64,000 nt of DNA from Maribacter stanieri. Its GTDB lineage: Bacteria; Bacteroidota; Bacteroidia; Flavobacteriales; Flavobacteriaceae. Within the stretch, counting starts at the first letter, position 1; each line of letters starts with the position of its first letter. Below the pieces are notes generated by a model, which was not told where the DNA came from, made no database searches, and was given only the letters and a program-made list of their open reading frames with translations. Positions 45,156-57,356 of this stretch are shown here, in pieces. A program made the position numbers and the translations under genes. The DNA is taken from contig NZ_FOYX01000001.1 in assembly GCF_900112245.1 (NCBI RefSeq), forward strand, positions 248,001 through 312,000. Reading direction: 5' to 3'.

Positions 45156-45219
45156 AGTTTTTGTAAAAATTATACGATGAGTGATGTCAAATAAATATAA
45201 TTTGTACATTTACCCTGTA

Positions 45220-45306
45220 ATGAACGAAAAAAACTACTTTCTATATAGTACCGTGAGCCCAGTTGCTCTTGCGCGTCCGTTCACATCTCGCCGTCGTCGC
45301 CCGTAA
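45220..45306 (+). CDS. Arginine-rich leader peptide ahead of the arginine/proline operon
   Basis: A 28-codon ORF (ATG 45220, TAA 45304) ends ALARPFTSRRRRP-stop. It has five Arg codons, four consecutive, all CGT/CGC rather than the AGA preferred in this AT-rich genome. It lies 85 bases before the first operon gene. A run of the end-product amino acid near the end of a short ORF is the hallmark of attenuation leaders such as those of trp and his. The following GTAA-loop mini-hairpin (CCCGTAAGGG) overlaps its stop; a T run is at 45363-45369, but no classic terminator stem was found. A second short ORF (45322-45411) overlaps the GNAT start. Confidence 0.7.
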   Translation: MNEKNYFLYSTVSPVALARPFTSRRRRP

Positions 45307-45391
45307 GGGTAAGATATAATTATGGAATTAGGTGAGTCCATTTCCGCACAGAAAATCAAAACTTTTTTTACACTTTTAAATCTAACTGGCA

Positions 45392-46024
45392 ATGAACTTA
45401 ATTGTTGCTAACGAATCACATTTTAAATACGCTCAGGATATCTGCGATACCATAGCAGATTCGGCTAAGGTTCGCGGAACAGGTATTGCGAAACGTACAC
45501 CAGAATACATCCAGAGAAAACTATCTAACGGCAATGCTATTTTAGCGTTGGACGGAGAGAAATTTGCAGGCTTTTGCTATATAGAGGTTTGGGGACATGA
45601 GAAATTTGTTGCCAATTCCGGACTAATAGTACACCCTGATTATAGGGGTCAAGGACTTGCAAAAAGTATAAAAGCTAGAATTTTTGAACTCAGCAGAGAA
45701 AAATTTCCTGATGCCAAAATATTTGGGATCACCACTGGTTTAGCCGTTATGAAAATTAACTACGAGCTTGGCTACAAACCTGTTACCTTTTCTGAGCTTA
45801 CAGATGATCCAGAGTTTTGGAAAGGTTGCCAAACTTGCAAAAATTTCGATATCCTTACCAGAACAGAACAAAAAATGTGCTTATGCACAGGTATGCTCTA
45901 TGATGGTAATGTTAAGAAAAAAACTGAGGAAGTAAAGCATGTGAACAGTAAGGCTTTTACAAGATTAAAAAGTATTAAAGAGAGTTTGTTCCTTAAAAAG
46001 AAAGTCGAAAAAAGTAAATCATAA
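45392..46024 (+). CDS. GNAT-family acetyltransferase, probable N-acetylglutamate synthase-type enzyme
   Basis: The 210-residue GNAT has its acetyl-CoA binding motif at VHPDYRGQGLAKSIKARIFE (about 88-107). Its C-terminal part carries CQTCKNFDI and CLCTGMLYD, a CxxC and CxC arrangement that may bind a metal and is absent from classical ArgA. It is the first gene of the arginine operon, and no canonical argA or argJ is seen in the operon. A role in acylating glutamate for arginine synthesis is therefore likely by position. This is inference; the acyl group could be acetyl or succinyl. Confidence 0.7.
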   Translation: MNLIVANESHFKYAQDICDTIADSAKVRGTGIAKRTPEYIQRKLSNGNAILALDGEKFAGFCYIEVWGHEKFVANSGLIVHPDYRGQGLAKSIKARIFELSREKFPDAKIFGITTGLAVMKINYELGYKPVTFSELTDDPEFWKGCQTCKNFDILTRTEQKMCLCTGMLYDGNVKKKTEEVKHVNSKAFTRLKSIKESLFLKKKVEKSKS

Positions 46025-47316: not shown

Positions 47317-47353
47317 GAGTAAAGATTTAGGAAAAAGTAGTATTAAGTAATGA

Positions 47354-47417
47354 GTACAAAGTATTAAGTAAAAAATTAAAAGTATCAACAAAGTACTTCG
47401 TACTTAATACTTTGTAC
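47354..47417. repeat. 17-bp perfect inverted repeat between argG and argC
   Basis: GTACAAAGTATTAAGTA (47354-47370) is the exact reverse complement of 47401-47417, with a 30-base interior. The interior contains a competing smaller palindrome (AAGTACTTCGTACTT at 47391-47405). The left arm also repeats AGTATTAAGTA found at 47339-47349. There is no T run, so it is not a simple terminator. It could cap or stabilise an RNA end or be a dispersed genomic repeat. Confidence 0.75.
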
Positions 47418-47450
47418 TTGATACTGATTTCTCATTCACAAAATAAAATT

Positions 47451-48425
47451 ATGATTAAAGCAGGAATTATTGGTGGATCTGGTTACACGGGTGGCGAACT
47501 TATTCGAATTCTATTGAATCACCCCGCCGCGGAAATAGATTTTGTCTACAGTACCACCAGAGCAGGTAAAAAGGTTACTACAGCACATCCAGACTTATTA
47601 GGAATAACAGATCTAGAATTTACAGGAAATGTAAACCTGAATGTCAATGTTGTTTTTCTGTGCCTAGGCCACGGTAACTCTACGGCTTTTTTAAAGGAAC
47701 ACAGCTTTTCTACAGATACTATTATTATCGATTTAAGTAACGATTTTAGACTAGTTGCAGATGCTAATTTTGATGGTAAACAGTTTGTATACGGATTACC
47801 GGAATTAAATAAAAGCGAAATAGAAAATGCCAAATACATAGCCAACCCTGGTTGTTTTGCAACAGCCATTCAATTGGCATTGCTTCCATTGGCAAAAGCA
47901 AAGCTCTTAGAAAATGAAGTGCATATAAATGCCGTAACAGGTAGTACAGGTGCAGGCGTTAGTCCGTCAGCCACTTCTCATTTTTCATGGCGAAACAATA
48001 ACGTAAGCTGGTACAAACCTTTTACGCATCAGCATTTGGGAGAAATCAATGAGAGTTTACATTCGCTTCAAGAAAATACTGGGAACTTATTTTTTATGCC
48101 CAATAGAGGAAATTTCACTCGTGGAATTTTAGCGACTTCGTATACCAAATTCGATGGGGATTTATCGGAAGCTAAAGTATTGTATCAAGATTTTTATAAG
48201 GATGCGGTCTTTACCCAAATTTCTGATGAGCCTATCAACTTAAAACAAGTGGTGAATACGAATCAGTGCCATATTCATTTGCATAAACACGATGATTTAT
48301 TACTGGTGACCTCAGCAATTGATAATCTATTAAAAGGTGCATCTGGGCAAGCCGTTCAAAATATGAATTTGATTTTAGGACTAGAAGAAAATTTAGGACT
48401 GAATTTAAAGGCAGGGGTATTTTAA
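47451..48425 (+). CDS. argC: N-acetyl-gamma-glutamyl-phosphate reductase
   Basis: The protein is 324 residues from ATG 47451, which puts the Rossmann motif KAGIIGGSGYTGGELIRIL at the N-terminus; the TTG-started longer frame lies in repeat DNA. The catalytic Cys is in NPGCFATAIQLALLPL (about 134). The enzyme reduces N-acylglutamyl phosphate to the semialdehyde with NADPH. It follows the inverted repeat and precedes proC. Confidence 0.93.
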   Translation: MIKAGIIGGSGYTGGELIRILLNHPAAEIDFVYSTTRAGKKVTTAHPDLLGITDLEFTGNVNLNVNVVFLCLGHGNSTAFLKEHSFSTDTIIIDLSNDFRLVADANFDGKQFVYGLPELNKSEIENAKYIANPGCFATAIQLALLPLAKAKLLENEVHINAVTGSTGAGVSPSATSHFSWRNNNVSWYKPFTHQHLGEINESLHSLQENTGNLFFMPNRGNFTRGILATSYTKFDGDLSEAKVLYQDFYKDAVFTQISDEPINLKQVVNTNQCHIHLHKHDDLLLVTSAIDNLLKGASGQAVQNMNLILGLEENLGLNLKAGVF

Positions 48426-48473
48426 CTTCCGCTACACTCAGTACTTTACTCATTACTAAATACTAATTACAAC

Positions 48474-49268
48474 ATGAAAATAGCTATTATAGGTACCGGT
48501 AATTTAGGACTTTCCATTGCAAACGGAATTCTAAAAAGTAATGGTGCCACTAGTATGTACCTTACTAAAAGGGATACTACATCTATTGCTGATTTTGAAA
48601 AATTTGATAAGGTTACGGTTACCAACGACAATCGTTTGGCTGTACAAAATTCAGACATCTTAATATTTGCCGTGCAACCTGTTCACTTTGCCGAAATTTT
48701 AGAAAGCATAAAAGACCTGTTAACTGAAAACCATGTAATTATTTCTACCATTACCGGTTTCGGAATCGAAAAAATAGAGGCAGTTATCGGTAAAGATAAT
48801 TATATTGTTAGAAGTATGCCTAATACCGCTATTTCTGTAGGCAAATCAATGACCTGTATTTGTAGTAATGAAAAAGGTAAAAAACGTATTGACTTAACAA
48901 AGGCTATTTTTAATAGAATGGGTCATTCTATGGAAATACCTGAAAACCAAATGCAGGCCGCAACGGTTATTTGTGCAAGTGGTATTGCTTTCTGGATGCG
49001 TTTAATACGTGCAACTACCCAAGGTGCCATACAATTAGGGTTTGATGCAAAAGAAGCACAAGAACTTGCCATGCACACCTGTAATGGCGCCGCAAGTTTA
49101 CTTATAGACTCTGGCAATCACCCAGAAGAAGAAATAGACCGTGTTACTACGCCAATGGGCTGTACAATAACCGGATTAAACGAAATGGAACACCAAGGTT
49201 TAAGTGCGTCTTTAATACGTGGCATTATTGCTTCTTATGATAAGATTACCGAATTTAAAACCAAGTAA
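48474..49268 (+). CDS. proC: Pyrroline-5-carboxylate reductase
   Basis: This 264-residue enzyme makes proline from pyrroline-5-carboxylate with NAD(P)H. It has the dinucleotide motif IAIIGTGNLGLSIANGIL, VRSMPNTAISVG and the C-terminal family signature DRVTTPMGCTITGLNEME. It is embedded in the arginine operon, so proline and arginine synthesis are co-expressed. The pathways share glutamate and glutamate-semialdehyde-type intermediates. Confidence 0.93.
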   Translation: MKIAIIGTGNLGLSIANGILKSNGATSMYLTKRDTTSIADFEKFDKVTVTNDNRLAVQNSDILIFAVQPVHFAEILESIKDLLTENHVIISTITGFGIEKIEAVIGKDNYIVRSMPNTAISVGKSMTCICSNEKGKKRIDLTKAIFNRMGHSMEIPENQMQAATVICASGIAFWMRLIRATTQGAIQLGFDAKEAQELAMHTCNGAASLLIDSGNHPEEEIDRVTTPMGCTITGLNEMEHQGLSASLIRGIIASYDKITEFKTK

Positions 49269-49315
49269 AACAGCAATAAAATGAGTTCTTTTTTGAACTT
49301 GAATCTTTTTGAATT

Positions 49316-50440
49316 ATGAAATTATTCGACGTTTACCCATTATATAATGTTACCCCTATTTCCGCTAAAGGAATTGTAGTGACCGACGATAAAGGTCAAG
49401 ACTACTTAGATTTCTACGGCGGGCATGCCGTAATATCCATTGGTCATACGCACCCACATTATGTGCAACGTTTAAAAGACCAGTTAGATAAAATAGGGTT
49501 TTATAGTAATGCTGTTCAAAATCCGCTACAAGAGGAACTAGCAGAAAAACTTGGTGTAATTTCTAAGTGTGAAGATTATAACCTTTTTATGTGTAACTCT
49601 GGCGCCGAGGCAAATGAAAACGCACTTAAAATGGCATCTTTTGCAACAGGGAAATCTAAAATTATAGCTTTTAACAACGGATTTCACGGGCGTACTTCTG
49701 CTGCCGTGGCGGTTACGGATAATCCTTCTATAAATGCTGAAATTAACCAACAGCATGAAGTAGTTTTTCTTGACCTGAATGACATAAAAGGTTTTGAACG
49801 AGAAATTTCCAAGAATGTCTGCGCCGTAATTATAGAATCTATACAAGGAGTAGGTGGACTAGATGAACCTACCACAGAATTTTTACAGAAAGTAGCAGCA
49901 CTATGTAAAGAAAATGATGCTTTATTAATTGCTGATGAAGTACAATCGGGATTTGGTAGAAGTGGTAAGTTTTTTGGATTTCAGCATCATAATATACAAC
50001 CTGATATCATTAGTATCGCTAAAGGTATGGGTAACGGCTTCCCTGTTGGCGGCGTTCTTATTCATGAGAATATTAAGGCAAAATACGGAATGCTAGGTAC
50101 CACTTTTGGTGGTAATCATTTGGCTTGTGTAGCTACATTAGCTGTTTTAGATGTCATTGAAGGAGAAAACTTAATTGCAAATGCTGAAGAACTCGGGATT
50201 TATTTCAATGAAAAGGCAAAAGAAATTCCGCAAGTAAAACGAGTAAAAGGAAAAGGTTTAATGCTAGGATTAGAATTTGATTTTCAAGTAGCTGATCTAC
50301 GTAAAAAATTGATTCACGAGCATCACCTTTTCACCGGTGGTGCAAAAGATAAAACGGTACTTAGAGTATTACCGGCATTGAATATTACCAAACAAGATTT
50401 AGACGTGTTTTTCACCGCTCTTAAGACTGCTTTATCATGA
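49316..50440 (+). CDS. argD: Acetylornithine/succinylornithine aminotransferase
   Basis: This 374-residue PLP enzyme is in class III aminotransferases. Motifs are YLDFYGGHAVISIGHTHP, NSGAEANENALKMA, HGRTSAAVAVT, LLIADEVQSGFGRSGKF (Asp for PLP nitrogen) and ISIAKGMGNGFPVGG, whose Lys forms the Schiff base. The enzyme converts N-acylglutamate semialdehyde to N-acylornithine. It overlaps proA by four bases. Confidence 0.93.
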   Translation: MKLFDVYPLYNVTPISAKGIVVTDDKGQDYLDFYGGHAVISIGHTHPHYVQRLKDQLDKIGFYSNAVQNPLQEELAEKLGVISKCEDYNLFMCNSGAEANENALKMASFATGKSKIIAFNNGFHGRTSAAVAVTDNPSINAEINQQHEVVFLDLNDIKGFEREISKNVCAVIIESIQGVGGLDEPTTEFLQKVAALCKENDALLIADEVQSGFGRSGKFFGFQHHNIQPDIISIAKGMGNGFPVGGVLIHENIKAKYGMLGTTFGGNHLACVATLAVLDVIEGENLIANAEELGIYFNEKAKEIPQVKRVKGKGLMLGLEFDFQVADLRKKLIHEHHLFTGGAKDKTVLRVLPALNITKQDLDVFFTALKTALS

Positions 50441-51633
50441 TAAAAACGCTCAGCTTAGCAAAAAGGAATGCCGTTCTAAAACGCATGGCAGAATTGGTTC
50501 AACAAGAAGAATCTATTTTAATATCTGCAAATGAGAAAGATTTAAATTCTTTCGAATCTGCTGACATTGCAATGATCGACCGTTTAAAGGTGGATAAAGA
50601 TAAGGTTAGAGAAATGGTTTCTTCCTTAAAAAAATTAGCTGCACTAGCTGATCCTTTACATGTAGAACGTTTTCAATTTACGCATGACAATGGTTTAGAA
50701 ATTAGTAATAAAACAGCCCCGTTCGGCACTATCATGATCATTTATGAATCTAGACCAGATGTCACTATTGAAGCTGCCGGTATTGCTTTTAAATCTGGAA
50801 ACAAGATTTTATTAAAAGGTGGGAAAGAATCGTTGAACTCGAACTTGGTTTTAGTCAATTTGTGGCATAAAGCTTTAGAATCTTGTGACTGTTCTGAGGA
50901 TTGGATTACGTACTTGAATTATTCAAGAACAGAAACGCAGCAGTTTCTAGAAAAACCAGCTCAAAAACTAGATTTAATTGTACCGCGTGGTGGTGAAAGA
51001 TTGATTGCTTTTGTAAAGCAACATGCGCAATGCCCTGTAATTGTTAGCGGCCGTGGAAACAACTTTGTATATGTTTCTCATGAAGCAGATTTGCAAATGG
51101 CTTTAGATGTAATCATCAATGCCAAGACCACAAAAATATCGGCATGTAACGCGGTTGACAAAGTAATTATCTCTAGAGATTTACCCCGTAAAATGGAGTT
51201 TTTAAATCACTTGGTTAAAACGCTTAAAAAATATGATGTGTCCATTTTGACCGATGCTAAACTAGCTGGGTTAGATGGTACTTCTCAAATGGAAAATGAG
51301 TCCGTGTGGTATGAAGAATTTCTAGATTATAAAATTGTTATTGGACAAGTGCCCGATGTCGATGAGGCCATACAACTTATCAACACCTACGGTGGCGGGC
51401 ATTCAGCTGCCATTATCACAAAAGACGAAGAAGAGGCAGATACTTTTATGCAATCTGTAGATACTGCGGCTGTATATCATAATGCATCTACCCGTTTTAC
51501 TGATGGCGGACAATTTGGATTAGGTGGCGAACTGGCAATCAGCACCGATAAATTACACCAACGCGGACCAATTGGCTTACAGCACTTAGTTACCAATAAA
51601 TGGTACGTCAAAGGAAATGGTCAAGTTAGATAG
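50437..51633 (+). CDS. proA: Glutamate-5-semialdehyde dehydrogenase (gamma-glutamyl phosphate reductase)
   Basis: The 398-residue aldehyde-dehydrogenase-fold enzyme has the segments PFGTIMIIYESRPDVTIEAA, LKGGKESLNSN, LIVPRGGERLI, the catalytic Cys region KISACNAVDKVII and TRFTDGGQFGLGGELAISTD. It makes glutamate semialdehyde for proline. Its start overlaps the argD stop by four bases. proB follows, separated by a 46-base spacer with tandem GTTAG-like words. Confidence 0.93.
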   Translation: MIKTLSLAKRNAVLKRMAELVQQEESILISANEKDLNSFESADIAMIDRLKVDKDKVREMVSSLKKLAALADPLHVERFQFTHDNGLEISNKTAPFGTIMIIYESRPDVTIEAAGIAFKSGNKILLKGGKESLNSNLVLVNLWHKALESCDCSEDWITYLNYSRTETQQFLEKPAQKLDLIVPRGGERLIAFVKQHAQCPVIVSGRGNNFVYVSHEADLQMALDVIINAKTTKISACNAVDKVIISRDLPRKMEFLNHLVKTLKKYDVSILTDAKLAGLDGTSQMENESVWYEEFLDYKIVIGQVPDVDEAIQLINTYGGGHSAAIITKDEEEADTFMQSVDTAAVYHNASTRFTDGGQFGLGGELAISTDKLHQRGPIGLQHLVTNKWYVKGNGQVR

Positions 51634-51679
51634 TTAGGAGTTAGGTAGAAATAATTACCCTGACGAAAACGAAACAAGC

Positions 51680-52447
51680 ATGTTGAAAAAGAGAATTTTA
51701 TTGAAATTGGGTTCCAATACCTTAACGAAAGACACTGATCATATCTCCCGTGGTAAAATCGAAGATATTGGTAGGCAAATAGCAGCCTTAAAAGATCAAT
51801 ATGAATTCATTATTGTGAGTTCTGGGGCTATTGCCGCAGCAAAACAATTTGTGAAACTGGAGCATAATGGTGAAGAAATCAATGTAAAACAGGCATTGGC
51901 TTCTATTGGACAGCCACACCTTATGCGTATTTTTCAAGAGAATTTTAGGGAGCTTGGGCTTTTTACATCTCAATGTTTGTTGTCATATTCAGATTTTGAA
52001 AAAGAGCAAACTAGAGTGAATATTAAAAATACAATCAACGTTCTTGTCGCTAATAATTTCATCCCTATCATTAATGAAAATGACACGGTAGCAACAGATG
52101 AAATTAAGTTTGGAGACAACGATAAATTAGCAGGACTAACAGCCTCTCTTTTATCCGCAGACATTCTAATTATCGCCACCAATACTGACGGTATATATAC
52201 GAAATCATCACTATCTACTTCCAAACCAAAAACAATTGAATCCGTATCAGATTTAAGCATTTTATTAAAAGAAATAGGGGAATCTAAATCTACCCATGGC
52301 ACTGGCGGAATGCAATCTAAAATAGATGCAGCAACCATCGCTCAAAAAGCAGGTATTGAAACTTGGATTACAAATGGTTTAAAAGATCACTTCATTACCG
52401 ACGCCATTGATAACAAAAGCATATTTACAAAAATTAAAGCATCATGA
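51680..52447 (+). CDS. proB: Glutamate 5-kinase (short form without PUA domain)
   Basis: The 255-residue amino-acid kinase has KKRILLKLGSNTLTKD, FIIVSSGAIAAAKQ, PIINENDTVATDEIKFGDND and GTGGMQSKIDAATIAQKAGI. It is shorter than the E. coli enzyme (367) because the C-terminal PUA domain is absent, a form common in several phyla. It makes gamma-glutamyl phosphate from glutamate, the regulated first step of proline synthesis. It overlaps the carbamoyltransferase gene by four bases. Confidence 0.93.
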   Translation: MLKKRILLKLGSNTLTKDTDHISRGKIEDIGRQIAALKDQYEFIIVSSGAIAAAKQFVKLEHNGEEINVKQALASIGQPHLMRIFQENFRELGLFTSQCLLSYSDFEKEQTRVNIKNTINVLVANNFIPIINENDTVATDEIKFGDNDKLAGLTASLLSADILIIATNTDGIYTKSSLSTSKPKTIESVSDLSILLKEIGESKSTHGTGGMQSKIDAATIAQKAGIETWITNGLKDHFITDAIDNKSIFTKIKAS

Positions 52448-53382
52448 ATTACCTTTCTATAAATGATATTGACTCTTTATCTACTTGGGTAAAAGAAGCT
52501 ATATCGCTTAAAAAACAACCAAAGAAACATAAAGCTTTGGGAAGTGATAAAACTATCGGACTCCTATTTTTCAATAACTCGCTACGTACTCGTTTAAGCA
52601 CTCAAAAAGCGGCTATGAATCTGGGTATGGAAGTTATTGTTATGAACTTTGGCAGTGAAGGTTGGGCTTTAGAATATGCCGACGGTACTGTTATGGACCA
52701 AGGTACATCTGAACATATAAAGGAAGCTGCGCAGGTAATTTCTCAATATTGCGACATCATTGCAATACGTGCTTTTGCAGGCTTAAAAGACAAAGAATTA
52801 GATGAAACAGAAGAAGTACTGAACGGCTTTAAAACATATGCATCTGTGCCTATCGTAAATATGGAGAGCTCTGTTGGTCACCCTTTACAGGCACTTACAG
52901 ATGCCATTACTTTAGAAGAGCACAACTTTAAGAACAACCCAAAAGTAGTTTTGTCATGGGCACCACACCCACGAGCATTACCACACGCAGTTGCCAATTC
53001 ATTTATTCAAATGATGCAGAAGCAAAATGCAGAATTTGTTATTACACATCCTGAAGGATATGATCTTGACCCTAACATAACCAAAGATTCTAAAATAGAA
53101 TATGATCAAGAGAAAGCATTGGAAAATGCTGATTTTGTTTATGTAAAAAACTGGAGCAGTTATACTGATTATGGCCAGATAAAATCTCAAGATAAGAATT
53201 GGGAAATGACCTTAAAAAAACTGGGCAAGGCAAAATTTATGCACTGTTTACCAGTACGTAGAAATGTTGTAGTTGCAGATGAAGTTTTAGATAGTGAGCA
53301 ATCTTTGGTCATAGAGCAGGCCAATAACAGAACGTATGCCGCACAATTAGTTTTAAAGAAAATACTAGAAGATTTAAAATAA
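52444..53382 (+). CDS. argF': N-acylornithine carbamoyltransferase (ArgF' type)
   Basis: This 312-residue carbamoyltransferase has the carbamoyl-phosphate motif FFNNSLRTRLSTQKAA and the family-typical MEVIVMNFGSEGWALEY and MHCLPVRRNVVVADEVLD. The sequence belongs to the N-acetyl/N-succinylornithine carbamoyltransferase branch, not classical ornithine carbamoyltransferase: the usual SMRT(R) and HCLP contexts differ and argE lies downstream. At the position I align with Pro90 (succinyl, Bacteroides fragilis) or Glu92 (acetyl, Xanthomonas), it has Ser in GTSEHIKEAAQ. The acyl group cannot be called with certainty. Confidence 0.9.
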   Translation: MNYLSINDIDSLSTWVKEAISLKKQPKKHKALGSDKTIGLLFFNNSLRTRLSTQKAAMNLGMEVIVMNFGSEGWALEYADGTVMDQGTSEHIKEAAQVISQYCDIIAIRAFAGLKDKELDETEEVLNGFKTYASVPIVNMESSVGHPLQALTDAITLEEHNFKNNPKVVLSWAPHPRALPHAVANSFIQMMQKQNAEFVITHPEGYDLDPNITKDSKIEYDQEKALENADFVYVKNWSSYTDYGQIKSQDKNWEMTLKKLGKAKFMHCLPVRRNVVVADEVLDSEQSLVIEQANNRTYAAQLVLKKILEDLK

Positions 53383-53387
53383 AAACA

Positions 53388-54140
53388 GTGTACAAACTCG
53401 AGAACAAAGTAGCAATTATTACAGGAGCAACCAGTGGAATGGGTAAAGCCATAGCCAATTCATTTGTCGCAAATGGTGCCCAAGTAATTTTATCTGGTCG
53501 CGATGAAACTCGAGGTAATTCCTTATCTGCTGAACTAGGTGAAAATACTGTTTTTGTAGCTGGCGATATCAGAATTCCTGAATACAACGAGCAATTGGTC
53601 AAAGCAGCTATTCATCATTTTGGCAAACTGGATATAGTTTCCATGAATGCAGGAATACTTGGTATAGGCAGTGTAACCGATTTACCAGATGAGTTATGGA
53701 AGAACACCATGGATACCAACTTGTCTTCCATCTTCTATCTATCAAAATATGCAATACCTGAACTCCGAAAAAACGAGGGTTCTTCTATTTTAATAAATGC
53801 CTCTATAGCCGCTTATAAAAGTTTTCCAAACCACCCTGCGTATTGTGCTTCCAAAGCCGGAGCACTAGCACTAATGCGCCAAATGGCCGTCGAGTATGGT
53901 CCTGAAATCAGGGTAAATGCAATATGCCCCGGACCAGTAGATACTCCGCTACTTTGGAATTCGGCAAAGGCTTTTGACAACCCCAAAAAAGCTGTAGAGA
54001 ATGCAGCGAACAAAACATTATTAAAACGACTGGGCAAACCAAATGAAATCGCTAATCTTGCTTTATTTCTAGTATCAGATGATGCTTCTTGGATTACAGG
54101 CACGGCAATGACTATAGATGGCGGAATTTTAAATGCTTAA
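53388..54140 (+). CDS. Short-chain dehydrogenase/reductase inside the arginine operon
   Basis: The 250-residue SDR starts with GTG 53388, five bases after argF'. It has the cofactor motif IITGATSGMGKAIANSF, the NAG motif in VSMNAGILGIG, a catalytic Ser in LINASIAAYKSF and YCASK. The C-terminus is WITGTAMTIDGGILNA, as in classical 3-ketoacyl/glucose-dehydrogenase-like SDRs. It is not a known arginine or proline step. The substrate is unknown; an aldehyde or keto side product of the pathway is possible. Confidence 0.88.
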   Translation: MYKLENKVAIITGATSGMGKAIANSFVANGAQVILSGRDETRGNSLSAELGENTVFVAGDIRIPEYNEQLVKAAIHHFGKLDIVSMNAGILGIGSVTDLPDELWKNTMDTNLSSIFYLSKYAIPELRKNEGSSILINASIAAYKSFPNHPAYCASKAGALALMRQMAVEYGPEIRVNAICPGPVDTPLLWNSAKAFDNPKKAVENAANKTLLKRLGKPNEIANLALFLVSDDASWITGTAMTIDGGILNA

Positions 54141-54141
54141 C

Positions 54142-54921
54142 ATGAAAGAAAAACTATCCGTAGTAAAAATTGGAGGAAACGTCATAGAAGATGAAAAAGC
54201 ATTAGATAATTTTCTCTCTGCATTTTCTCGACTAGAGGGACTTAAAATATTAGTACATGGCGGTGGAAAATTAGCTACTCAATTAGCTACCAAATTGGGA
54301 ATTGAATCTAAAATGATTGATGGCAGACGTATTACCGATGCCGAAACGGTAGATATTATTACCATGGTTTATGGGGGATTAGCCAATAAGAAAATTGTAG
54401 CTCAACTACAATCTAAAAATATCAATGCCATTGGCTTAAGTGGTGCGGACGGTAACAGCATACAAGCTCATAAACGTCCTGTAAAACAAATTGACTACGG
54501 CTTTGTTGGAGATATTGACGGTGTTAGTTCTGAATTATTAAAAAACCTGCTATCTATAAACCTTACTCCTATTTTCTGTGCGCTTTCTCATGACGGTGCC
54601 GGACAATTACTAAACACCAATGCCGACACTATTGCCTCTGAAATTGCAATTGGAATGGCTTCTGTTTTTGAGACCACCCTCTATTATTGCTTTGAGAAAA
54701 AAGGTGTTTTACTAGATATTACAGATGAAAATAGCGTGGTTAAAAACATTGATACAAGCAAATACAAGGAATTATTGTCTAAAGGTGTTATAGCCGATGG
54801 TATGCTACCTAAACTTCATAATTGCTTTCATGCATTAGATAACAATGTTGAAAAAGTTTGCTTAGGTGATGTTAGTATGCTAGATAAAAATACAAAACTG
54901 TTCACTACCTTAAAATTATAA
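54142..54921 (+). CDS. argB: N-acetylglutamate kinase
   Basis: The protein is 259 residues from ATG 54142; ATG 54133 would overlap the SDR stop by eight bases and adds three residues. The amino-acid kinase fold shows KEKLSVVKIGGNVIED, KILVHGGGKLATQLATKLGI, GRRITDAETVDIITMVYGG and ISNTNAD-like LLNTNADTIASEIAI. It phosphorylates N-acylglutamate. Argentine-type feedback regulation cannot be judged from the sequence. It precedes argE by one base. Confidence 0.92.
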   Translation: MKEKLSVVKIGGNVIEDEKALDNFLSAFSRLEGLKILVHGGGKLATQLATKLGIESKMIDGRRITDAETVDIITMVYGGLANKKIVAQLQSKNINAIGLSGADGNSIQAHKRPVKQIDYGFVGDIDGVSSELLKNLLSINLTPIFCALSHDGAGQLLNTNADTIASEIAIGMASVFETTLYYCFEKKGVLLDITDENSVVKNIDTSKYKELLSKGVIADGMLPKLHNCFHALDNNVEKVCLGDVSMLDKNTKLFTTLKL

Positions 54922-54922
54922 G

Positions 54923-55987
54923 ATGAACCAAACAGAACTTACAGAAAGTGCAATAGCATTATTGAAAGAATTGATTTCAATTGAATCTTTTTCCAAAGAG
55001 GAAGATAAAACCGCAGATGCTATACAGGCTTGGTTGGGAAAATACAATATCCCAACAGATAGGGACCTCAACAATATCATCGCCAAGAATAAATATTGGG
55101 ACGAATCAAAACCCACATTACTTTTAAACTCTCATCACGATACTGTAAAACCAAATACTGCATATACCAAAGACCCATTTCTACCACATATTGAAGATGG
55201 CAAACTATTTGGGTTAGGTAGTAATGATGCTGGTGGACCTTTAGTTTCCCTATTGGCGACTTTCGTTACATATTACAACTCTGAAAATCTCAACCATAAT
55301 ATTTTAATGGTAGCTTCTGCAGAAGAAGAAAATGCTGGGGAAAATAGCCTACGTGGATTATTGCCAAAATTGCCTCATATTGATGTTGCAATTGTTGGTG
55401 AACCTACCTTAATGCAACTTGCCATAGCCGAAAAGGGCCTTGTAGTTTTTGATGCCGTAATAAAAGGCACACCATCACATGCAGCGCACCCCAACGAGGA
55501 CAATGCTATTTATAAGTCAATCAAAGTATTAGATTGGTTCAAAAATTATAAATTCGAGAAAAGCTCTGAAGCTTTGGGCGATGTAAAAATGACCGTTACC
55601 CAAATAAATGCTGGAACGCAGCATAACGTAGTACCTGCACAGGTTGATTTAGTAGTTGATGTAAGGGTCAACGATGCCTATAGCAATAAAGAAATTGCAG
55701 ATTTGCTAAAGAAGGATGCTCCATGCGAATTAAAGGAACGATCTTTGCGTCTAAATTCATCGAAAATAAATAAAGACCATCCGTTAGTGCAGTCTGGCAT
55801 TGCGTTAGGTAGAACAACTTATGGCTCACCTACTCTTTCTGATCAGGCAGCGTTAAGTTGTCAATCTTTAAAATTAGGCCCAGGAGATAGCACACGTTCT
55901 CATTCTGCCAATGAATTTATCTATGTTGATGAAATTGTAGAAGGTATTGATTTGTATATTAAAATATTAAAAGGATTTTTGCACTAA
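54923..55987 (+). CDS. argE: Acetylornithine/succinyl-type deacylase, M20 family
   Basis: This 354-residue zinc hydrolase of family M20 removes the acyl group after carbamoylation, giving citrulline or ornithine. Metal ligands are LLLNSHHDTVKP, GSNDAGGPLVSLLATF, ASAEEENAGENSLRG (the EE pair), VGEPTLMQLAIAEKG and the terminal His in TRSHSANEF. Because the carbamoyltransferase acts on N-acylornithine, the natural substrate would be N-acylcitrulline. It is followed by a 91-base spacer with short iterated words before argH. Confidence 0.9.
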   Translation: MNQTELTESAIALLKELISIESFSKEEDKTADAIQAWLGKYNIPTDRDLNNIIAKNKYWDESKPTLLLNSHHDTVKPNTAYTKDPFLPHIEDGKLFGLGSNDAGGPLVSLLATFVTYYNSENLNHNILMVASAEEENAGENSLRGLLPKLPHIDVAIVGEPTLMQLAIAEKGLVVFDAVIKGTPSHAAHPNEDNAIYKSIKVLDWFKNYKFEKSSEALGDVKMTVTQINAGTQHNVVPAQVDLVVDVRVNDAYSNKEIADLLKKDAPCELKERSLRLNSSKINKDHPLVQSGIALGRTTYGSPTLSDQAALSCQSLKLGPGDSTRSHSANEFIYVDEIVEGIDLYIKILKGFLH

Positions 55988-56078
55988 GCTTTCAGCTAGC
56001 AATTAATAAATTATAAAGAGCTAACAGTATCTTCAATTTAATGAAATTGATATTTGCTCTTGAACTTGAACTTGACTT

Positions 56079-57356
56079 ATGAAACTCTGGGATAAAGGAT
56101 TTAGCACCGATAAGAAAATAGACCATTTTACGGTAGGAAATGATAGAGAACTTGATTTGCATTTAGCAAAGTATGATGTAATTGCATCTAAAGCCCACGC
56201 TAAAATGCTAGGTGAAATTGGTTTAATAACTCCCAAAGAAACCAAAGAACTTGTAAATGAGCTAAATCATATTGCAGCTAGAATTGAAAAGGGTACATTT
56301 TCTATAGAGAAATCTTTTGAGGACATGCATTCAAAAATTGAATACATGCTTACCCTTAGTTTAGGCGATACAGGTAAAAAAATACATACGGCAAGATCTA
56401 GAAACGATCAAGTTTTAGTGGCAATGCATCTTTATCTAAAAGATGAACTAGATGAAATAAAATCAATGACCAAATCGCTTTTTAACCTTCTTCTGGTAAA
56501 AGCGCAAGAACATAAAGATGTAATGTTGCCGGGTTATACCCACTTACAAATTGCTATGCCATCTTCTTTTGGACTTTGGTTTTCTGCTTATGCAGAAAGT
56601 TTAATAGATGATCTTTATTTTATTGAAGCAGCATATAAAGTTGCCGATCAAAACCCTTTAGGAAGTGCTGCAGGTTACGGTAGTTCATTTGCTATTGACC
56701 GCAGATTCACTACCAAAGAAATGGGCTTTAGTACCTTAAAATATAACGTAGTTGCCGCTCAAATGAGTAGAGGAAAAGCTGAAAAGGCTACCGCTTTCGG
56801 TATTGCCAACATTGCCGCTACCCTATCTAAAATGGCAATGGACATCTGCCTCTACATGAGTCAGAACTTCGATTTTATTTCATTCCCAGATGAATTGACT
56901 ACAGGTTCTAGCATTATGCCACATAAGAAGAACCCAGATGTATTTGAATTAGTTCGTGGTAAATGTAATAAGCTACAATCTATACCCAATCAATTAACCT
57001 TAATCATCAATAACCTTCCGAGTGGTTACCATAGAGATTTGCAATTGGTGAAAGAAATAATTGTTCCGGCTATTCAAGATATGAAAGCTTGTTTAGAGAT
57101 TTTGACGTTTAGTCTAAAAGAAATTAGAGTGAATAAAAACATTCTGGACGACCCAAAATACGACTACTTATTTAGTGTAGATACCTTAAATGAATTGGTA
57201 CAGAACGGCATGCCATTTAGAGATGCTTACAAGAAAATGGGGCAAGAAATAAATGATGGTACGTTTACACCTAAAAGAGATATTCATCACACCCATGAAG
57301 GTAGTTTAGGTAATTTATGTTTAAAGGAAATTCATGATAAGATGAAAAAGGTTTAA
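56079..57356 (+). CDS. argH: Argininosuccinate lyase
   Basis: The last arginine step, splitting argininosuccinate into arginine and fumarate, is carried out by this 425-residue enzyme. It has the fumarase/aspartase superfamily signature TGSSIMPHKKNPDVFELVRG (about 280-299) and the upstream motifs TARSRNDQVLVAM and GYTHLQIAMPSSFG. It is slightly shorter than the E. coli enzyme. Its stop overlaps the convergent BrkB-family gene stop by four bases, so it ends the operon. Confidence 0.95.
   Translation: MKLWDKGFSTDKKIDHFTVGNDRELDLHLAKYDVIASKAHAKMLGEIGLITPKETKELVNELNHIAARIEKGTFSIEKSFEDMHSKIEYMLTLSLGDTGKKIHTARSRNDQVLVAMHLYLKDELDEIKSMTKSLFNLLLVKAQEHKDVMLPGYTHLQIAMPSSFGLWFSAYAESLIDDLYFIEAAYKVADQNPLGSAAGYGSSFAIDRRFTTKEMGFSTLKYNVVAAQMSRGKAEKATAFGIANIAATLSKMAMDICLYMSQNFDFISFPDELTTGSSIMPHKKNPDVFELVRGKCNKLQSIPNQLTLIINNLPSGYHRDLQLVKEIIVPAIQDMKACLEILTFSLKEIRVNKNILDDPKYDYLFSVDTLNELVQNGMPFRDAYKKMGQEINDGTFTPKRDIHHTHEGSLGNLCLKEIHDKMKKV

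What the first reader, a model, noticed from the sequence alone, without database searches (positions are those of the whole stretch)
45220..45306. Leader peptide with Arg-Arg-Arg-Arg ahead of the arginine/proline operon
A 28-codon ORF ending ALARPFTSRRRRP-stop lies just upstream of a complete arginine operon. Four consecutive Arg codons near the stop are what an attenuation leader needs to sense charged tRNA-Arg. All Arg codons are CGT or CGC, whereas neighbouring genes mostly use AGA, so a specific tRNA may be sensed. Known ribosome-stall attenuators are best described in Proteobacteria and Firmicutes; I am not aware of a described arginine leader in Bacteroidota. No classic terminator stem was found, so the mechanism could be translational coupling instead.
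Basis: partly seen in the sequence, partly recalled or inferred. Interest (0 to 1): 0.8.

Follow-up and report, generated by a model that had tools for sequence, protein, structure and literature searches.

The report
Arginine-sensing leader RNA in Flavobacteriaceae
Many Flavobacteriaceae start their arginine-making operon with a tiny gene that ends in a run of arginine codons, followed by two conserved RNA hairpins, probably to sense arginine supply in place of a missing repressor protein.

Summary
The ORF is real. It is conserved ahead of the arginine operon in the genus (Maribacter) and widely in Flavobacteriaceae. Of 137 upstream regions read, 127 end Arg-Pro-stop; the other 10 keep in-frame Arg codons and stop slightly later. 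In 69 of 69 single-leader loci a TAnnTTT(G/A) promoter box lies 6-9 nt before the leader ATG, so the mRNA probably begins at its start codon.

Hairpin II contains the last Arg codon, Pro and stop. Hairpin III follows about 20 nt after the stop's first base: a covarying stem with a tip (bulged A, GG/CC, pentaloop UGNGU) present in 134 of 137. Stop-to-tip spacing is 26-30 nt in 124 of 124 that have both. No Rfam family matches. A covariance model hits 157 of 249 family genomes (155 with the operon's acetyltransferase gene); a 296-genome phylum sample gave no strong match outside the family. ArgR was found in 0 of 120 family genomes.

Best reading: ribosome-mediated arginine sensing. How stalling changes expression is not shown: no general intrinsic terminator and no conserved competing fold were found. 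New variant of a known kind.

The parts
45205..45212 (+). promoter -7 box TACATTTA (TAnnTTTG type), 7 nt before the leader ATG
   Evidence: TAnnTTT(G/A) within 22 nt of the leader ATG in 69 of 69 single-leader loci (6-9 nt away), against 4 of 69 before the acetyltransferase ATG; the strict TAnnTTTG in 36 of 69. The consensus is from PMC9723704 (passage). The start site is inferred.
45220..45306 (+). leader ORF, 28 codons, ending SRRRRP-stop
45255..45268 (+). hairpin I (GAGC..GCTC) inside the leader ORF; absent by eye in some relatives (L038, L047)
   Evidence: 2 pairs with double changes in 29 genus sequences; 63 of 69 windows fold below the shuffled mean, mean z -1.4; this window itself z -0.16
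45289..45300 (+). four Arg codons CGC CGT CGT CGC
45298..45311 (+). hairpin II (CGCCC-GUAA-GGGUG in the consensus): last Arg codon, Pro codon and stop
   Evidence: 91.6% of cells paired; a CG-to-AU change at one pair in 3 sequences; the outer pair fails in 32 of 102 sequences, this window among them
45324..45345 (+). hairpin III: stem, bulged A, GG/CC, pentaloop UGAGU
   Evidence: stem covaries; GGTGNGTCC in 134 of 137. In this genome AGGTGNGTCC occurs at 8 places; the other 7 lie in open frames of 115-467 codons, though some of them can also fold
45392..46024 (+). GNAT-family acetyltransferase, first gene of the operon
   Evidence: PF00583, PF13508
46129..47316 (+). argG, argininosuccinate synthase
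47451..57356 (+). rest of the operon: argC, proC, argD-like, proA, proB, OTC-like, SDR gene, argB-like, argE-like, argH
   Evidence: proA, proB, the SDR gene, argE and argH named from sequence, not scanned

Best explanation
A cis-acting, ribosome-mediated arginine sensor. SHOWN BY COMPARISON: transcription very probably starts a few nt before the leader ATG; the leader is very probably translated; it carries Arg codons exactly where hairpin II begins; it ends before hairpin III, in most loci at a nearly fixed distance. INFERRED: when charged tRNA-Arg is scarce, the ribosome waits on the Arg codons, inside hairpin II, and the operon is expressed. When arginine is plentiful it runs to the stop, leaves, hairpin II re-forms and expression falls. 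The covarying hairpin III, placed just beyond the expected front edge of a ribosome at the stop, passes this on to RNA polymerase, Rho, an RNase or a bound protein. Among these I favour factor-dependent early termination or RNA decay over an intrinsic terminator or blocked translation start, with low confidence. The element would do the job that ArgR does in other bacteria.
For: Conservation: leader ORF in 30 of 30 genus loci and 27 of 27 further family loci. R-P-stop in 127 of 137 loci; the other 10 have 1-5 Arg in the last ten codons of a frame that stops 10-19 nt before the tip.

Coding: 20 disjoint pairs give 47 synonymous / 62 other single changes in frame, against 34/84 and 12/96 in the other two frames.

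Arg identity: other codons in L287 and L288; AGA in L022 and L026.

RNA: 103 sequences, 92.7% of cells paired (shuffles 86.5); 91 cells with double changes against 25.8 (0 of 500 reach it); 7 pairs with double changes against 4.6 (7 of 500 reach it); sliding the partners breaks it.

Geometry: stop-to-tip spacing 26-30 nt in 124 of 124; promoter box in 69 of 69.

Association: 157 model-positive of 249 genomes, 155 with the acetyltransferase gene; the other two have the motif before another GNAT-like gene plus argG and argC.

ArgR: 0 of 120, control positive.
Against: No expression or ribosome data. No general intrinsic terminator (8 of 137). No conserved alternative pairing: Arg-region/loop pairing averages about 0.33 in the 30 genus loci, 0.17 in all 69 single-leader loci and 0.03 in the 55 other-type loci. 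The window leader does not fold better than shuffles (z 0.59). A ribosome on the Arg codons and one at the stop both open hairpin II, so the two states differ less than in classical attenuators. The coding signal is moderate. Of the 127 R-P-stop frames, 18 show no ATG within 45 codons, and several of the ten others offer only GTG or TTG. Of 10 model-negative loci read, 5 have no short ORF with an Arg pair (L289, L291, L292, L293, L295).
Confidence: 0.6

Rival explanations
1. Arrest peptide: the nascent chain F-x-P-x-RRRP-stop stalls the ribosome at Pro-stop when free arginine is high, like TnaC with tryptophan.
For: Pro-stop in 127 of 137. Phe at -8 in 50 of 69 single-leader peptides, with both TTC and TTT; Pro or Ser at -6 in 54 of 69.
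Against: Ten loci do not end Pro-stop, and in four of them (L082, L087, L097, L098) the residue after the Arg pair is Thr or Leu, while a stem is kept there. Pro-stop can be explained by hairpin II pairing. Peptides of the tandem type differ upstream.
Confidence: 0.15
2. Protein-bound or ligand-bound RNA element: hairpin III is the receptor of an arg-specific RNA-binding protein or of arginine, and the leader ORF is secondary.
For: Tip fixed in sequence on a covarying stem. AGGTGNGTCC occurs at 8 places in the genome; the other 7 lie in open frames of 115-467 codons.
Against: Does not explain the Arg codons, kept with other codons in L287 and L288 where the motif is absent, or the fixed spacing to the stop codon. 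Some of the other 7 sites can also fold (L279, L281, L285).
Confidence: 0.15
3. The short ORF is only a by-product of a structured RNA; its frame is open because hairpin sequence is conserved.
For: CGC and CCG of the last two codons are invariant in the 69 single-leader peptides and lie in hairpin II. No ATG within 45 codons in 18 of 127.
Against: Frame-specific synonymous excess; 3-nt gaps; stop kept as TAA, TAG or TGA; start codon at the promoter; other Arg codons in L287 and L288.
Confidence: 0.07

Closest known systems
Salmonella speF leader orf34 (PMC6386406; abstract and passages seen)
   Same: Short upstream ORF with consecutive Arg codons senses arginine; a hairpin downstream of the stop; no Rho-independent terminator found by its authors; Rho and RNase G act
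   Different: Controls ornithine decarboxylase, not arginine synthesis; 34 aa with the Arg pair at codons 12-13; long 5' UTR. Not compared by sequence here
Classical amino acid attenuators (his, trp, thr of enterobacteria; recalled)
   Same: Leader peptide rich in codons for the operon's product
   Different: No terminator/antiterminator pair found here; a conserved hairpin tip instead
S. aureus rbfL (PMC13009471; abstract and passages seen)
   Same: Leader ORF with Arg codons senses arginine limitation
   Different: Paused ribosome blocks the downstream ribosome-binding site; controls a biofilm regulator; opposite sign
Flavobacterium psychrophilum leader-peptide candidates (PMC9723704; passages seen)
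   Same: Same family; 'strong clues' for leader-peptide attenuation ahead of amino acid operons
   Different: The passages seen name no arginine leader; its supplements could not be read
ArgR/AhrC repressor (PF01316)
   Same: Would serve the same purpose
   Different: Protein repressor; not found in 120 family genomes

Membership tests
Ribosome-mediated transcription attenuator | translated short ORF between promoter and operon | tested here: met
   (by comparison, not by experiment)
Ribosome-mediated transcription attenuator | codons of the pathway's product near the ORF end | tested here: met
Ribosome-mediated transcription attenuator | intrinsic terminator before the first gene | tested here: not met
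   8 of 137 loci, shuffled control 1 of 137
Ribosome-mediated transcription attenuator | mutually exclusive antiterminator fold, conserved | tested here: not met
   only a genus-level candidate pairing
Ribosome-mediated transcription attenuator | expression falls with the amino acid | not testable with these tools
   needs bench work
Known Rfam family | match to a curated model | tested here: not met
   gathering: only a tRNA in the window; none to E 10; 20 relatives: one chance hit far below its cut-off
TnaC-like arrest peptide | invariant C-terminal peptide with Pro-stop (feature recalled) | tested here: not met
   127 of 137 Pro-stop; 10 exceptions
ArgR regulon | ArgR in the genome | tested here: not met
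   0 of 120, this genome among them

The most novel reading that the evidence does not exclude
A two-input arginine control element: leader ribosome position reports tRNA-Arg charging, and hairpin III, an arg-specific receptor with a bulged A and a UGNGU pentaloop, binds an unknown protein or arginine itself. Together they replace ArgR across most Flavobacteriaceae that have the operon, working without an intrinsic terminator and from a nearly leaderless mRNA.
Probability: 0.2. Interest if true: 0.85.

Novelty: new variant of a known kind. Interest (0 to 1): 0.62.

Why it matters
If right, it explains how a large bacterial family controls arginine synthesis without ArgR. It gives a clean, family-wide case of leader-peptide control in Bacteroidota, where initiation mostly works without Shine-Dalgarno sites (recalled). 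Hairpin III offers a fixed RNA structure whose partner can be fished for directly, and the tandem-leader and codon-swapped relatives are natural experiments on how such sensors evolve.

Tried and rejected
Anti-SD idea: the tip AGGUGA-UCC resembles the complement of the 16S 3' end (recalled). Rejected because the sixth base varies (A, U, C) and L128 swaps G-C for A-U, which makes GG/CC a pair.

Second ORF MELGESISA over hairpin III: start codon and frame are not conserved by eye, dropped.

Arg-codon/loop pairing as the switch: strong only in the genus.

Blocked acetyltransferase start: no change of predicted accessibility.

Motif as a general attenuation part: AGGTGNGTCC is at 8 places in this genome and the other 7 are in open frames of 115-467 codons; three of those (L279, L281, L285) can fold with GG/CC under a pentaloop, and I did not identify their genes. 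A search for five-His runs gave nine places; I read the local frames, recognised no his leader, and did not check what lies downstream.

Motif outside the family: in 296 genomes across the phylum, 13 have a match at E 1e-7 or better, all in the family; 46 more genomes have weak ones (24.5 bits or less). I listed ORFs around two of these (G601, G440) and saw no arg gene; stretches from G433 and G370 were fetched but not read.

Errors and choices of mine: one search did not reverse-complement minus-strand loci (mended); one search mixed the two ORFs of tandem loci (superseded). The 69 'single-leader' loci were chosen by eye. The weak-hit cut (six genomes dropped: G090, G104, G124, G215, G236, G239) was set by hand after seeing the E-values. 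Of 13 acetyltransferase-positive genomes outside the 157, I read 10. For alignment A2 I dropped 31 of the 134 tip-bearing loci as near copies, and the three without the tip.

Full report
OBSERVATION. The 28-codon ORF at 45220-45306 is exactly as described, ending ALARPFTSRRRRP-stop, 85 nt before a GNAT-family acetyltransferase gene and a full arg/pro operon that runs to argH. The genus is Maribacter, judged from the record titles of near relatives.

CONSERVATION. The acetyltransferase was found in 35 of 36 genus genomes and 197 of 299 family genomes. I read 137 upstream regions: 30 from the genus, 27 more that came as loci, and 80 fetched by hand from the listed places; the list was cut, so the most distant relatives are under-sampled, and some loci are near copies. 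All 30 genus loci and all 27 next loci have the leader ORF. Of 137, 127 end R-P-stop. The ten others (L082, L087, L097, L098, L130, L137, L140, L145, L149, L151) have 1-5 Arg in the last ten codons of a frame that stops 10-19 nt before the tip of hairpin III. Against the reading: 18 of the 127 show no ATG within 45 codons, and several of the ten offer only GTG or TTG.

CODING. In 20 disjoint pairs of single-leader ORFs, first and last four codons left out, synonymous/other single changes are 47/62 in frame against 34/84 and 12/96 in the shifted frames. The stop is TAA, TAG or TGA. In two genera where the RNA motif is missing (L287, L288) the leader has RRRR or RRR in quite different codons. 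That argues for the amino acid, not the RNA, being kept. Arg codons of the 69 leaders are CGC 152 and CGT 140 of 311, against CGC 7 and CGT 31 of 104 in 13 neighbouring genes; hairpin II explains part of this, since the last Arg is CGC in 69 of 69.

START. In 69 of 69 single-leader loci a TAnnTTT(G/A) box lies 6-9 nt before the leader ATG, against 4 of 69 before the acetyltransferase. The strict form TAnnTTTG is in 36 of 69; this window has TACATTTA. The box is the flavobacterial -7 consensus (PMC9723704, passage). The leader mRNA is thus probably leaderless or nearly so; the start site itself is inferred.

RNA MOTIF. Hairpin II holds the last Arg codon, Pro and stop. Hairpin III has a stem that changes in step (GGAAAU/AUUUCC, GGAACU/AGUUCC, GGGAAU/AUUCCC, GGAGUU/AACUCC) under a tip GGTGNGTCC found in 134 of 137. 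L128, one of the three exceptions, has G-to-A with C-to-U, so GG/CC is a pair and the loop is the pentaloop UGNGU, below which an A bulges. On 103 sequences aligned without structure, 92.7% of cells pair (shuffles 86.5), 91 cells carry double changes (shuffles 25.8, none of 500 as high), 7 pairs do (shuffles 4.6, 7 of 500 as high), and sliding the partners destroys the signal. The outer pair of hairpin II fails in 32 of 102. From stop to tip the distance is 26-30 nt in 124 of 124 loci that have both R-P-stop and tip. Hairpin I, inside the ORF, folds below its shuffled mean in 63 of 69 but is absent in some relatives. No Rfam family matches.

DISTRIBUTION. The covariance model R1 hits 163 of 249 family genomes at E 0.05; without six weak ones, 157, of which 155 are among the 168 with the acetyltransferase. 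The two others, G118 and G186, carry it before a different GNAT-like gene followed by argG and argC. Among 80 named loci fetched by the acetyltransferase, 80 have it; several are the same genomes as above. In 296 genomes across the phylum, strong matches (E 1e-7 or better) are in 13, all of the family; 46 more have weak ones, which I take for chance after looking at two. Over 40 genomes the search uses stricter filters, so weak members may be missed. ArgR (PF01316) is in 0 of 120 family genomes, while the control rings in Bacteroides, E. coli and others.

MECHANISM. The Arg run at the point where hairpin II begins, and the fixed distance from stop to hairpin III, tie ribosome position to the RNA. 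I therefore favour ribosome-mediated sensing of charged tRNA-Arg. What the stalled ribosome changes is open. Intrinsic terminators are rare (8 of 137). Predicted folding with a ribosome on the Arg codons or at the stop raises hairpin III from 0.46 to 0.61 and 0.70 and leaves the acetyltransferase start unchanged; a competing Arg-region/loop pairing is strong only in the genus. The stretch after hairpin III is G-poor (C 16%, G 6.5%), which would suit Rho but is weak evidence. The best-known comparable case, Salmonella speF, also lacks an intrinsic terminator and involves Rho and RNase G (PMC6386406, abstract and passages).

LITERATURE. Eight searches of the held open-access library listed no paper that I recognised as describing an arginine leader in Bacteroidota. 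The nearest is a statement that leader-peptide attenuation is likely before amino acid operons in F. psychrophilum (PMC9723704, passages), whose tables I could not read. A survey of Actinobacteria reports no arginine attenuator there and T-boxes for arginine elsewhere (PMC1262725, passage). Passages of PMC8632094 and PMC2965389 gave no arginine operon leader of this kind. Subscription papers are not covered.

VERDICT. A real, conserved cis-regulatory element; sensing well supported by comparison, output step unknown; a new variant of a known kind.

Noticed in passing
L096, L101, L111, L112, L114, L117, L121, L124, L131, L143 and others: 30 of 137 loci carry an earlier second leader ORF near -300, such as MKNLKNKIRCTIPGLPVRSRRRF-stop, also ending in Arg: tandem arginine leaders (one search lists 31; I left out L052, which looks like a gene end).
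   Followed up: partly
L287, L288: A different arginine leader (FRRRRCRE-stop; PRRRIRE-stop) with AGA, AGG and CGA codons and, by eye, a hairpin over or near the stop, in genomes without the motif.
   Followed up: partly
L290, L291, L294: Diverged relatives keep a hairpin II-like stem but lose the UGNGU tip (by eye).
   Followed up: no
window 47330-47440: Inverted-repeat-rich AGTATTAAGT/ACTTAATACT stretch between argG and argC (by eye).
   Followed up: no
L007, L016, L018, stretch on the argG side of the acetyltransferase: Tandem arrays of TCTATAC in some Maribacter loci.
   Followed up: no
window 53388-54140: A short-chain dehydrogenase-like gene sits inside the arg/pro operon between the OTC-like gene and the argB-like gene (named from sequence).
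   Followed up: no
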